NCBI RefSeq assembly: GCF_001570945.1
Contig: NZ_BCSQ01000039.1
Location: 1-34,173 of the forward strand
DNA from: Janibacter anophelis NBRC 107843
Lineage (GTDB): Bacteria > Actinomycetota > Actinomycetes > Actinomycetales > Dermatophilaceae
DNA: 34,173 bases
Direction: 5' to 3'
Each line of letters starts with the position of its first letter. The first letter of the stretch is position 1. The notes beneath the pieces were generated by a model, which was not told the origin of the DNA, did no database searches, and worked only from the letters and a program-made list of their open reading frames with translations. Position numbers and translations under genes: made by a program. Shown here one piece after another: positions 14,245 to 18,298 of this stretch.

Positions 14245-14315
14245 CGAAGGGGGCAGGCCGGGGGAGGCAGCCCCGACGACCCTCGGCCCGATTTCGGCTC
14301 AGGGCGCGGCGCTGG

Positions 14316-14321
14316 TACCGT
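14316..14321 (+). promoter_or_regulatory. Candidate -10 element for the infC operon
   Basis: TACCGT preceded by TGG (extended -10 style) fits TAnnnT and lies about 245 bases before infC. The -35 region 17 bases upstream (TTCGGC) is a poor match. Transcription would begin near 14328, just before the first hairpin of the leader. Confidence 0.35.
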
Positions 14322-14327
14322 TTGGCA

Positions 14328-14565
14328 ACGACCGGTCATCACCCTCGTGGTGGTGACGCAAGAGGAGCCTCGCTTCCACCCGCGCCGACCATCGTCCACG
14401 GACACAGGTTGCCGGGTCTCAGGTCTCGACGCGACATCGGGTCGCTGGACGCCCAGGCGTTCCGCTCCCTTCGTCGACGTCGTGCTCTGGTGAGGCTCCT
14501 CGCGACCGGCGAGGAGCCTTTCTTCGTCGGTGGCGGGAGTGACACACCGAGCTAAGGAGCAGCAC
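14328..14565 (+). ncRNA. Structured infC leader with apparent terminator/antiterminator switch
   Basis: This leader occupies most of the 321-base gap between the SseB-family gene and infC. Elements in order: a 9-bp hairpin, GTCATCACC/GGTGGTGAC (14335-14343 with 14349-14357, one G-U pair); GAGGAGCCTC at 14362-14371; a GCGAC/GTCGC hairpin (14431-14445); GAGGCTCCTC at 14492-14501; and GCGAGGAGCCT at 14509-14519 followed by a T-rich tract. The segment at 14492-14501 can pair perfectly either with 14362-14371 or with the downstream arm to form an intrinsic terminator. The two pairings exclude each other, which is the architecture of transcription attenuation. The operon encodes IF3, L35 and L20, and L20 or IF3 autoregulation of such operons is known in other bacteria. 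The actual ligand here is unknown. I see no convincing leader peptide. Confidence 0.55.
14493..14524 (+). terminator. Intrinsic terminator inside the infC leader
   Basis: AGGCTCCTCGC (14493-14503) pairs over 11 perfect base pairs with GCGAGGAGCCT (14509-14519) around a GACCG loop, followed immediately by TTCTT. It sits about 40 bases before the infC start codon, so it must be regulated or leaky for infC-rpmI-rplT to be expressed from the upstream promoter. Confidence 0.7.
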
Positions 14566-15195
14566 ATCAGCGAGCCTCGCATCAATGACCGTATCCGCGT
14601 CCCCGAGGTGCGGTTGGTCGGCCCCAACGGGGAGCAGGTCGGCATCGTGCGCGTGGAGGACGCCCTCCGTCTCGCCGCAGAGGCCGATCTCGACCTCGTC
14701 GAGGTCGCTCCGATGGCCAAGCCCCCCGTCGCCAAGCTCATGGACTTCGGCAAGTACAAGTACGAAGCCGCCATGAAGGCGCGTGAGGCCCGCAAGAACC
14801 AGGTCAACACGGTCATCAAGGAGATCAAGCTCCGACCGAAGATCGACAGCCACGACTACGGCACCAAGAAGGGCCACGTCGAGCGCTTCCTCAGCGCCGG
14901 CGACAAGGTCAAGGTGACGATCATGTTCCGCGGCCGCGAGCAGTCCCGCCCCGAGCTGGGCTTCCGACTGCTGCAGCGTCTGGCCGAGGACGTCGTGGAG
15001 CTCGGCACCGTGGAGTCCGCGCCCAAGCAGGACGGGCGCAACATGATCATGGTGCTCGCACCGACCAAGCGGAAGTCCGAGGCGCGCGCCGAGGCGCGAC
15101 GCAAGAAGGACCAGCAGAAGGCGGACTCCGCCGCCCCCGCGGAGGAGACCGCTGCCCCGGTGGAGGAGACCGCCGAGGCCCCGGCCGAGTCCTGA
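14566..15195 (+). CDS. infC: Translation initiation factor IF-3 (apparent AUC start)
   Basis: About 209 residues. IF3 binds the 30S subunit, keeps it apart from 50S and rejects non-canonical start codons and wrong initiator tRNA. The family start [23 protein letters not shown] follows an ATC codon at 14566, preceded at ideal distance (6 bases) by AAGGAG at 14554-14559. In-frame GTG codons at 14530 and 14539 have no comparable ribosome site and would add 9-12 non-family residues. An unusual start codon is a known autoregulatory device for IF3 (AUU in E. coli). Conserved elements include [41 protein letters not shown] and [12 protein letters not shown]. An Ala/Glu-rich tail of about 45 residues is typical of actinobacteria. 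It is first in the operon with rpmI and rplT. Confidence 0.93.
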
Positions 15196-15237: not shown

Positions 15238-15432
15238 ATGCCGAAGAACAAGACGCACTCCGGTGCGAAGAAGCGCTTCCGGGTCACCGGCTCGGGCAAG
15301 ATCATGCGCGAGCGCGCCAACCACGTCCACAAGTTCCACGAGAAGACCCCGCAGCACGCGCGTCGCCTCGCGAACGACGTGTTGGTCTCCAAGGCCGACG
15401 AGAAGAAGATCAAGAAGCTGCTCGGTCGCTGA
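15238..15432 (+). CDS. rpmI: Large ribosomal subunit protein bL35
   Basis: 64 residues, highly basic, full family length. It starts MPKNKTHSGAKKRFRVTGSG and ends KKIKKLLGR, as expected for bL35 of the 50S subunit. AAGGAG (15223-15228) lies upstream of the ATG. It is the second cistron of infC-rpmI-rplT, 42 bases after infC and 39 bases before rplT. Confidence 0.97.
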   Translation: MPKNKTHSGAKKRFRVTGSGKIMRERANHVHKFHEKTPQHARRLANDVLVSKADEKKIKKLLGR

Positions 15433-15471: not shown

Positions 15472-15855
15472 GTGGCACGCGTGAAGCGGGCGGTCAACGC
15501 CCACAAGAAGCGCCGGGTCGTCCTCGAGCGCGCCAGCGGCTACCGGGGCCAGCGCTCCCGTCTGTACCGCAAGGCCAAGGAGCAGGTCACCCACTCCCTC
15601 GGGTACAGCTACCGGGACCGTCGCGCCAAGAAGGGTGACTTCCGTCGCCTGTGGATCCAGCGCATCAACGCCGGCGCCCGCGCCAACGGCATGACCTACA
15701 ACCGGTTCATCCAGGGCCTGCGCGCCGCGGAGATCGAGGTCGACCGTCGCATGCTCGCCGAGCTCGCCGTCAACGACGAGGCCGCCTTCGCCGCGCTCGT
15801 CGAGATCGCCAAGGCCAATGTGCCGGCGCAGGCCGACGCCAAGGCCTCGGCCTGA
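15472..15855 (+). CDS. rplT: Large ribosomal subunit protein bL20
   Basis: 127 residues. bL20 binds 23S rRNA and is essential for early 50S assembly; in several bacteria it also represses its own operon by binding mRNA. It begins [20 protein letters not shown] and contains [31 protein letters not shown] and [20 protein letters not shown], all characteristic. The GTG at 15472 has AAGGAG (15459-15464) 7 bases upstream. It is the third cistron of the IF3 operon and is followed 56 bases later by an rRNA methyltransferase that is probably co-transcribed. Confidence 0.97.
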
Positions 15856-16738: not shown

Positions 16739-18298
16739 TCAGGTGCTGGCGAAGGTCTTCTTCTGGGGGATGACCTCGCCCGGGTCCACCGGCGACTCGT
16801 CCGCTGCAGCCTTGCCGTCGCGGATGCGCTGGCCGATCGTGGCGTCGACATTGGTCCAGTACTCGAAGACCCGCGAGAGCACCGGGTCCTCGACGCCGGC
16901 GAGCGAGCCGACGACGGTGGCCACGAGACGGTCGCGCTGGGCGTCGTCGAAGACCTCACGCACGAGCGTGCCCGGCTGACCGAAGTCGTCGTCCTCGGCG
17001 TGCAGCTGGTAGGCCGAGCGCACGATCTCGCCGTCGGCCTCCCACCCGTCGTCGACCGGGCCCTGCTCGTCGGCCGTGGGTCGACCGAAGCTGTTGCCCA
17101 CGTACGTGGGTGCCGCTCCGGAGTGCTCGTAGCGCATCGGACCGTCGAACGAGTAGTGGTTCTCGTGCTCGATCGCCGGACGGTTGACGGGCAGCTGGTG
17201 GAAGTTCGGCCCGATGCGGGCGCGGTGGGCGTCCGCATAGGCGAAGACGCGACCGAGCAGCATCTTGTCGGGCGAGAAGCCGATGCCCGGGACGGTGTTG
17301 CTCGGCGCGAAGGCTGCCTGGTCGATCTGGGCGAAGAAGTTGACCGGGTTCTCGTCGAGGGTCATCGTGCCGACCTCGATGAGCGGGTAGTCCGCGTGCG
17401 ACCAGGTCTTCGTCAGGTCGAAGGGGTTGAAGCGGTAGGTCTTCGCGTCCTCGTACGGCATGACCTGCACGGACAGCTTCCACTGCGGGGCGTCACCGCT
17501 CGCGATGGCCTCGAAGAGGTCGCGACGGTGGAACTCCGCGTCCTGACCGGCGATCCGGTCGGCCGCCTCGCCCGTGAGGCCCTCCACGCCCTGCTGGGAG
17601 TGGAAGTGGTACTTGACCCAGAACCTCTCACCGGAGGCGTTGACCCACATGTAGGTGTGGCTGCCGTAGCCGTTCATGTGGCGCCAGGAGCGGGGCAGGC
17701 CGCGGTCACCCATGAGGTAGGTGACCTGGTGGGCGGACTCGGGGTGCGCCGTCCAGAAGTCCCACTGCATCGTGTTGTCGCGCAGACCGCTGTCGGGCAG
17801 GCGCTTCTGGCTGCGGATGAAGTTGGGGAACTTCAGCGGGTCACGCAGGAAGAAGATCGGCGTGTTGTTGCCGACGAGGTCGAAGTTGCCCTCGGAGGAG
17901 TAGAAGCGCAGGGCGAAGCCGCGCACGTCACGCCACGTGTCGGGGGACCCGAGCTCACCGGCGACGGTGGAGAAGCGGGCGAGCATCCGGGTGGTCGCGC
18001 CCTGCTGGAAGAGGGCCGCCTTGGTGTACTGCGACACGTCGGCGGTCGTCTCGAAGTGGCCGAAGGCGCCGGACCCCTTGGCGTGGGGCTTGCGCTCGGG
18101 GATGTTCTCCCGGTTGAAGTGGGCGAGCATGTCGACCAGGTGGGTGTCGTGCAGCAGCAGGGGGCCGTTGCTGCCGACGGAGAGGCTGTTGCGGTCGCTG
18201 ACGGCCGGGGCTCCGTTGACCTGGGTCGAGGGGCCTGAGACATCGAGCGTGCCCCGGGCGTCCGAGCGCGGCTCCGGGGTGGAAGGGGTGGGTGACAT
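16739..18298 (-). CDS. katA: Monofunctional heme catalase
   Basis: 519 residues; breaks hydrogen peroxide into water and oxygen in the cytoplasm. Active-site elements: distal His H72 in [13 protein letters not shown], distal Asn in [15 protein letters not shown], and the proximal heme-binding tyrosine in [17 protein letters not shown]. Size and the short C-terminus place it among small-subunit catalases. The ATG at 18298 (minus strand) is chosen because GAGGAG lies about 7 bases upstream and the family homology begins soon after; the frame stays open upstream but runs into the regulator gene. It lies 41 bases downstream of a Fur-family regulator on the same strand, the catR-catA type of arrangement for peroxide-inducible catalase. 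Confidence 0.96.

What the first reader, a model, noticed from the sequence alone, without database searches (positions are those of the whole stretch)
14328..14565. Attenuator-like switch in the actinobacterial infC-rpmI-rplT leader
The sequence directly shows three mutually related segments: GAGGAGCCTC (14362-14371), GAGGCTCCTC (14492-14501) and GAGGAGCCT (14511-14519). The middle one can pair perfectly with either neighbour. Pairing with the last gives an 11-bp hairpin with a T-rich tail (an intrinsic terminator) about 40 bases before infC. Pairing with the first would prevent it. A separate 9-bp hairpin caps the leader. Intrinsic attenuators are uncommon in high-GC actinobacteria. Autoregulation of this operon by L20 is known in Bacillus and E. 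coli, but I do not recognise this leader as a described RNA family.
Basis: partly seen in the sequence, partly recalled or inferred. Interest (0 to 1): 0.75.

Follow-up and report, generated by a model that had tools for sequence, protein, structure and literature searches.

The report
Class-wide RNA switch before infC
The start of the messenger RNA for a translation factor and two ribosomal proteins carries a conserved RNA switch, shared by a large class of bacteria that includes Streptomyces, that can stop transcription early, probably so that the cell makes only as much of these proteins as it needs.

Summary
In detail: the three segments, the 9-bp cap hairpin and the terminator lie where stated, before infC (AUC start, 14566). 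The attenuator reading is supported and sharpened. The leader belongs to an RNA class found before infC-rpmI-rplT across the window's taxonomic class: model hits in 86 of 88 sources at E<=1 (30 are training) and 93 of 100 further infC upstream regions at E<=0.01. A conserved core (P1; variable hairpin Pa; CAAG; P2; P3) precedes a terminator. This antiterminator covaries: own partners beat swapped ones in 71 loci (0 of 20,000 permutations) and 69 held-out loci (0 of 20,000); linker controls are far weaker or flat. So P2, antiterminator and terminator exclude one another. Rfam RF02830 (Scr1601, filed as a Streptomyces sRNA) spans P1 to the T-run before infC and is most likely the terminated form. 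No cis-regulator of this kind was found in Rfam or in the paper listings seen. Ligand: probably L20 (inferred, not shown).

The parts
14316..14321 (+). putative -10 box TACCGT (extended TGGTACCGT); transcription start expected near 14327
   Evidence: TANNNT starts 8-26 nt upstream of P1 in 62 of 86 leaders against 9 of 86 in an equally long control window; Scr1601 begins 3 nt before P1 with the same AACGACC; the consensus promoter scan found none
14330..14333 (+). P1 5' strand GACC, pairs with 14422-14425
   Evidence: GACC/GGUC, GAUC/GAUC in L067, L072, L081; 4 of 4 pairs formed in 30 of 30 sequences of A1 (the ends were chosen by these words, so partly by construction) and 96.1% of cells in A2 (alignment fitted to the model)
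14335..14357 (+). Pa, the 9-bp cap hairpin, variable in sequence between relatives
   Evidence: in relatives 77 of 83 Pa segments hold a run of 4 or more pairs, median z -2.08 against mononucleotide shuffles
14359..14362 (+). conserved CAAG with unpaired AA
   Evidence: invariant in the 30 sequences of A1; AAG was required by the word search, so its full conservation in 185 cores is by construction
14364..14376 (+). P2 hairpin (GGAGC/GCUUC), competes with the antiterminator
   Evidence: 98.8% of cells paired, 4 of 4 pairs with a change on both sides; 100% and 2 of 4 on A1; -3.9 kcal/mol in the window
14378..14417 (+). P3 (ACCCG/CGGGU base, bulged inner helix)
14422..14425 (+). P1 3' strand GGUC
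   Evidence: 12 bp with 14490-14501; covariation
14490..14501 (+). antiterminator 3' strand, overlaps the terminator 5' arm
14492..14520 (+). intrinsic terminator hairpin with T-rich tail
   Evidence: -24.9 kcal/mol for 14488-14522; my scan accepted a hairpin of -12 kcal/mol or better with T-rich tail in 71 of 86 leaders
14554..14559 (+). Shine-Dalgarno AAGGAG of infC
   Evidence: sequence
14566..15195 (+). infC (IF3) with AUC start codon
   Evidence: Pfam IF3_N and IF3_C; ATC at the same place in 8 of 8 aligned rows, window included
15238..15432 (+). rpmI (L35)
15472..15855 (+). rplT (L20)

Best explanation
It is an actinobacterial transcription attenuator of infC-rpmI-rplT. Transcription starts about 3 nt before P1. 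Without ligand, the 5' side of P2 (14362-14373) pairs with the terminator's 5' arm once that is transcribed; this antiterminator lets polymerase read into infC. When a ligand holds the P1-Pa-P2-P3 core, P2 stays closed, the arm is free, the terminator forms and a transcript of about 195 nt is released. Shown by comparison: conserved core, conserved terminator, antiterminator covariation. Inferred: the direction of the switch, and L20, made by the last gene of the operon, as ligand, giving feedback. I put the three-helix attenuator at about 0.9 and the whole statement with L20 as ligand at the confidence below.
For: Antiterminator: own versus swapped partners, 71 of 86 leaders used, mean duplex -17.2 versus -13.8 kcal/mol and 7.28 versus 6.83 pairs of 9, 0 of 20,000 permutations each; 24 non-redundant loci 14 of 20,000. 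Controls: linker 2,927 and terminator 3' arm 12,604 of 20,000. Held-out, 69 of 100 used: z 4.03 for pairs and -6.31 for energy, 0 of 20,000 each. Core covariation. Folding: with the transcript ending at 14501 the antiterminator state is -88.7 against -72.6 kcal/mol with P1 and P2 held; ending at 14530, antiterminator -105.5, terminator -101.6, terminator with P1 and P2 -96.5, so read-through is the predicted default. Scr1601 spans P1 to the T-run and is transcribed in S. lividans (PMC8079986, passage). In M. tuberculosis the 326-nt infC 5' UTR has 2.6 (exponential) and 4.9 (stationary) times the read density of the coding region (PMC3207917, passages). Ligand: in a search not aimed at infC, 20 of 20 same-class genomes with a hit have it within about 300 nt upstream of IF3 on the same strand, one copy each at E<=0.01, which points to a product of this operon. 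The core's unpaired AA and its G-C pairs fit the two features reported for L20 leaders (PMC7247131, passage); AAGUGGA or AAGUGGG sits in 23S rRNA at the place that I recall as H40/H41, the L20 site, and AAGUGGA starts 17 nt before E. coli rpmI.
Against: No experiment on this leader. In the 24 non-redundant loci the linker control was borderline (1,009 of 20,000), and the terminator 3' arm control was slightly positive for energy in the held-out set (316 of 20,000); no tree-based test was run. Several leaders have a poor own antiterminator (L033, L039, L084, L037: 55 to 65 of 71 arms pair better). 26 of 100 held-out leaders had no terminator by my scan, though 21 of these 26 have a core hit at E<=0.01, so attenuation may not be the only output (by eye some of the 26 do have hairpins with weak tails). 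L20 binding is untested; the shared word is short, recurs elsewhere in the fetched 23S loci, and the window itself reads AAGAGGA, not AAGYGGA. 'AA plus two G-C pairs' is a weak signature. The simple scan missed terminator and promoter.
Confidence: 0.62

Rival explanations
1. Same attenuator, but the ligand is IF3 or L35 (or an assembly intermediate), not L20.
For: IF3 is said to control its own gene through the non-canonical start codon, ATC in Streptomyces (PMC5472188, passage); the leader lies directly before infC; one copy per genome.
Against: L20 controls this operon by attenuation in Bacillus (review PMC10931766, passage); I recall no leader of this type known for IF3 or L35.
Confidence: 0.17
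2. Ribosome-mediated attenuation: a leader peptide is translated and ribosome position decides between antiterminator and terminator.
For: 45 of 71 leaders hold an ATG in some frame and 21 of 71 a Shine-Dalgarno-like word plus a start codon.
Against: 50 of 71 lack SD plus start; I saw no shared reading frame, though frames were not aligned systematically; what is conserved is a structured junction that starts about 3 nt after the expected start site.
Confidence: 0.05
3. The short RNA is the product: Scr1601 is a trans-acting sRNA, and read-through into infC is incidental.
For: Rfam files RF02830 as Gene; sRNA; it is annotated as a separate transcript in S. lividans (PMC8079986).
Against: 20 of 20 same-class genome hits lie just before IF3; antiterminator covariation has no role in this reading; in S. 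ambofaciens the homolog was found in a UTR and not among the predicted sRNAs, and re-examination gave separate ncRNA signals for two other RNAs only (PMC8388888, passages).
Confidence: 0.05
4. A metabolite or ion riboswitch: the junction binds a small molecule that reports growth rate.
For: A highly conserved junction with invariant unpaired bases looks like an aptamer and is present also where no terminator was found.
Against: Found only before one operon, which encodes possible protein ligands; no second copy at E<=0.01 in 22 genomes with a hit.
Confidence: 0.06

Closest known systems
Rfam RF02830 Scr1601 (Streptomyces RNA 1601)
   Same: Upstream of infC: in G107 and G182 the match ends about 90 nt before IF3; IF3 is SCO1600 in S. 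coelicolor (PMC3897704, passage). Spans P1 to the T-run with the same P1, P2, P3. Homologous to a leader here: 33.9 bits, E 0.0011 in L027, below cut-off.
   Different: Filed as an sRNA gene; over its cut-off in 7 of 198 phylum genomes, all of one genus; no match in the window region at E<=10; its structure line shows no antiterminator.
Firmicutes L20 leader (RF00558; number recalled)
   Same: Same operon, leader upstream of infC, alternative structures of which one is a terminator (review PMC10931766, passage).
   Different: No L20 family among the matches to the window or to six tested loci at E<=5; by the text seen the B. subtilis site lies at a junction of helices H1 and H2 (PMC6097659, passage), here a core of P1, Pa, P2, P3 with P2 as the switch strand.
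E. coli L20 operator before rpmI and Deltaproteobacteria L20 motif
   Same: L20 autoregulation; AA dimer and G-C pairs as shared binding features (PMC7247131, passage).
   Different: Translational in E. coli, acting on the r-protein genes and not on infC.
Actinobacterial r-leader candidates for L17 and L31 (Eckert and Weinberg 2020)
   Same: Comparative r-leader predictions in the same phylum (PMC7247131, section 5).
   Different: Other genes; no actinobacterial infC or L20 leader among the 20 listed in its Table 1. Its supplementary list of earlier r-leaders was not seen.

Membership tests
RF02830 Scr1601 | Score above the gathering cut-off (100 bits) | tested here: not met
   no match in the window, nor in 14250-14600 at E<=10; met by 7 of 198 phylum genomes
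RF02830 Scr1601 | Position before infC, from P1 to the terminator T-run | tested here: met
   L083 1501-1707; R1 hits L082-L088 at the same place (L083 and L084 are in its training set)
RF02830 Scr1601 | Independent trans-acting sRNA | not testable with these tools
   -
L20 leader of Firmicutes | Match to an Rfam L20 covariance model | tested here: not met
L20 leader (functional kind) | Leader of an operon that encodes L20 | tested here: met
   that the three genes form one transcript is inferred from spacing
L20 leader (functional kind) | Mutually exclusive terminator and antiterminator | tested here: met
   (covariation, not experiment)
L20 leader (functional kind) | rRNA-like L20 site: AA dimer and two consecutive G-C pairs | tested here: inconclusive
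   both present; shared word with 23S and the E. coli rpmI upstream region, but the signature is weak and the word recurs elsewhere
L20 leader (functional kind) | L20 binds the RNA and represses | not testable with these tools
   -

The most novel reading that the evidence does not exclude
A single conserved aptamer-like junction governs IF3, L35 and L20 supply across a whole bacterial class, with interchangeable outputs: an intrinsic terminator in most families and some other, perhaps translational, output in families that kept the core but lost the terminator. It would be a further, independently built L20 sensor that re-uses the 23S word AAGUGGA, and Scr1601 would be its released product.
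Probability: 0.35. Interest if true: 0.75.

Novelty: new variant of a known kind. Interest (0 to 1): 0.62.

Why it matters
It gives a class of bacteria that (recalled) includes antibiotic producers and major pathogens a defined, testable RNA control of translation-factor and ribosomal-protein supply, reinterprets a filed 'sRNA' as a terminated leader, offers a further structure in which L20 may recognise RNA, and suggests that intrinsic attenuation without an evident leader peptide is common in high-GC genomes.

Tried and rejected
Leader peptide: start codons are present in part of the leaders but no shared frame was seen. Second gene targets: no second R1 copy at E<=0.01 in the 22 genomes with a hit and only an E=1.12 hit in the own genome, so the infA/infC leader homology reported for M. 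tuberculosis (PMC3207917) finds no support from this model; infA leaders were not examined directly. Hits outside the class (L109, L112; E 0.002-0.004) have no IF3 in the fetched 2.7-3.1 kb and are treated as chance; likewise the weak RF02830 hit L089. The own genome has no 23S in its assembly, so 23S was taken from four other genomes and E. coli.

A first regex failed on most loci and two automatic P1 parsers were noisy, so the seed sequences were cut by hand-chosen end words; 32 were cut and 30 used (L008 and L015 left out), and P1 counts on A1 are partly by construction. In one search the enforced terminator pairs were shifted by mistake; the state energies used are. A2 was fitted to the model structure, so its counts lean towards it.

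Rows dropped: in the first covariation test 15 of 86 leaders (6 with no hairpin found, 9 weaker than -12 kcal/mol), and in some used rows (for example L064, L082) the scan may have picked a hairpin other than the real terminator; in the held-out test 1 without core word, 4 identical in the core to earlier loci or to each other, 26 without terminator, leaving 69 of 100. L043 and L076 were missed by R1, though by eye both carry the core words. Of 152 class genomes with IF3 only 100 infC upstream regions were fetched, chosen by me for spread and room on the contig.

Full report
Observation. The three segments, the cap hairpin and the terminator were found at the stated places. The segment followed by its reverse complement at this distance is absent from 100 shuffles of the window. 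The downstream genes are infC, rpmI and rplT. infC starts with AUC at 14566; Streptomyces infC is stated to use ATC too (PMC5472188, passage).

Relatives. Their infC leaders share one architecture: a -10-like box, then GACC, a variable hairpin, CAAG, a hairpin GGAG...CUCC, then CACCYG...CGGGU, GGUC, further hairpins, usually a terminator, and in most an AUC or AUU start. I aligned 30 hand-cut cores by sequence only (A1) and built model R1 with 14 pairs. Among 88 sources (window, 80 loci, 7 RF02830 loci) R1 hits 86 at E<=1, and 79 matches are at E<=0.01; 30 sources are its training set. In the own genome it finds this place at 2.5e-10 and otherwise only one match, E=1.12. Of 296 phylum genomes, scored with stricter filters, 22 have a hit at E<=0.01, one each; by the kinship column 20 of 26 genomes of the window's class and 2 of 270 others. 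By coordinates 20 of 20 class hits lie within about 300 nt upstream of IF3 on its strand. Five of the six class misses were found when only their infC upstream regions were searched (L192, L196, L200, L207, L211); the sixth was not fetched. Of 100 infC upstream regions chosen from 158 class genomes, 152 of them with IF3, 93 hit at E<=0.01; 4 of the 100 were identical in the core to earlier loci or each other.

Core covariation. On A1, 99.5% of cells pair, 20 cells change on both sides (shuffles 4.1; 0 of 500), 4 pairs do so (shuffles 1.9; 6 of 500), and sliding the partner destroys the signal. Clear cases are GACC/GGUC to GAUC/GAUC in P1, GGAG/CUCC to GAAG/CUUC in P2, and the variable pair in P3. 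On the larger A2, 11 of 14 pairs change on both sides, but A2 was fitted to the model.

The switch. For each leader the P2 region was paired with the 5' arm of its own terminator and with those of all other leaders. Own pairs are better: -17.2 against -13.8 kcal/mol in 71 of 86 leaders, 0 of 20,000 permutations of the row- and column-centred matrix; 7.28 against 6.83 pairs of 9, again 0. With a linker segment (2,927 of 20,000) or the terminator 3' arm (12,604) there is no effect. In 24 non-redundant loci the arm gives 14 of 20,000 and the linker a borderline 1,009. The held-out set repeats it in 69 of 100: 7.14 against 6.84 pairs and -18.4 against -16.5 kcal/mol, 0 of 20,000 each; the linker is flat (5,352 and 2,934), the 3' arm flat for pairs (7,792) and slightly positive for energy (316). 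The pairing keeps its place while its letters change, for example GAGGAGCC with GGCUCCUC in the window, GUGGAGGCUC with GAGCCUCCGC in L074, GCGGAGACCUGA with UCAGGGUCUCCGC (one bulge) in L046. Some leaders pair poorly with their own arm (L033, L039, L084, L037). P2 and the antiterminator share their 5' strand, and antiterminator and terminator share theirs, so the three exclude one another.

Direction. When the transcript ends at 14501 the antiterminator state is 16 kcal/mol better than the state with P1 and P2 held; ending at 14530 it is still 4 kcal/mol better than the terminator state and 9 better than the terminator with P1 and P2. Hence read-through is the predicted default and a ligand that holds the core would cause termination. 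This is inference from energies.

Known RNA. Rfam has no match in the window and none of relevance in the leader at E<=10. RF02830 Scr1601 matches the leader of L027 at E 0.0011, below its cut-off, and in the one genus where it passes the cut-off it spans, in L083, from 3 nt before P1 to the T-run before infC. It is filed as an sRNA. In S. ambofaciens its homolog was found in a UTR and not among the predicted sRNAs; the authors treated this as a possible misclassification and recovered separate signals only for two other RNAs (PMC8388888, passages). It is transcribed in S. lividans (PMC8079986, passage). I conclude that Scr1601 is most likely the terminated infC leader. For M. tuberculosis a 326-nt infC 5' UTR was reported with a UTR to coding ratio of 2.6 and 4.9, and regulation analogous to B. 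subtilis L20 was suggested (PMC3207917, passages). Ten paper searches (one listed only 25 of 1,853 papers) showed me no description of an actinobacterial infC attenuator; the papers opened were seen as passages or single sections, and the original Scr1601 paper did not appear.

Ligand. One copy per genome before this operon points to a product of the operon. L20 is favoured because it regulates this operon elsewhere, because the core shows the two features described for L20 leaders, and because of a word, AAGYGGA in 156 of 185 cores: 23S rRNA has AAGUGGA in L114, L116 and L117 and AAGUGGG in L113 (E. coli) and L115 at the place I recall as the L20 site, and AAGUGGA starts 17 nt before E. coli rpmI. 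Against this, AAGYGGA also occurs elsewhere in the fetched 23S loci (once in L113, twice in L116, three times in L117), the 185 cores were selected by a pattern containing AAG, and the window reads AAGAGGA. This is suggestive only.

Limits. 26 of 100 held-out leaders had no terminator by my scan, 21 of them with a core hit at E<=0.01, so the output may differ there. No experiment and no tree-based covariation test was done. S. coelicolor infC is said to have further promoters, one SigR-dependent (PMC5472188, passage), so the leader need not be on every infC transcript.

Noticed in passing
window 14566-14568: infC begins with AUC, as in the near relatives (8 of 8 rows with the window), so IF3 start-codon feedback and the attenuator would act as two layers on one gene.
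   Followed up: partly
L195, L199, L202, L203, L205, L208 (one large-genome family): The core reads AAGCGGGGGUUCGCCCUCCACC; by eye there is no terminator like those of the other leaders (my scan accepted a hairpin in five of the six), and another conserved block lies near the start codon. Another expression platform is likely.
   Followed up: no
L209, L213, L216, L217 (reduced genomes of 1.2-2.2 Mb): The core words are present but no terminator was found before infC; R1 hits are weak or absent in three of the four.
   Followed up: no
L164 and L187 (family f95): No terminator found; in L164 GCAAGCGG can pair with a downstream CCGCUUGC, as if the switch strand were used in another way.
   Followed up: no
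L219 (E. coli infC-rplT), 17 nt before rpmI: GAAGUGGAA resembles the 23S word AAGUGGRAA and the leader word; possible shared L20 recognition element.
   Followed up: partly
window 16739-18238, minus strand: An open frame that reads like a catalase (recognised by eye, no call) lies convergent to a frame that looks like an rRNA methyltransferase downstream of rplT.
   Followed up: no
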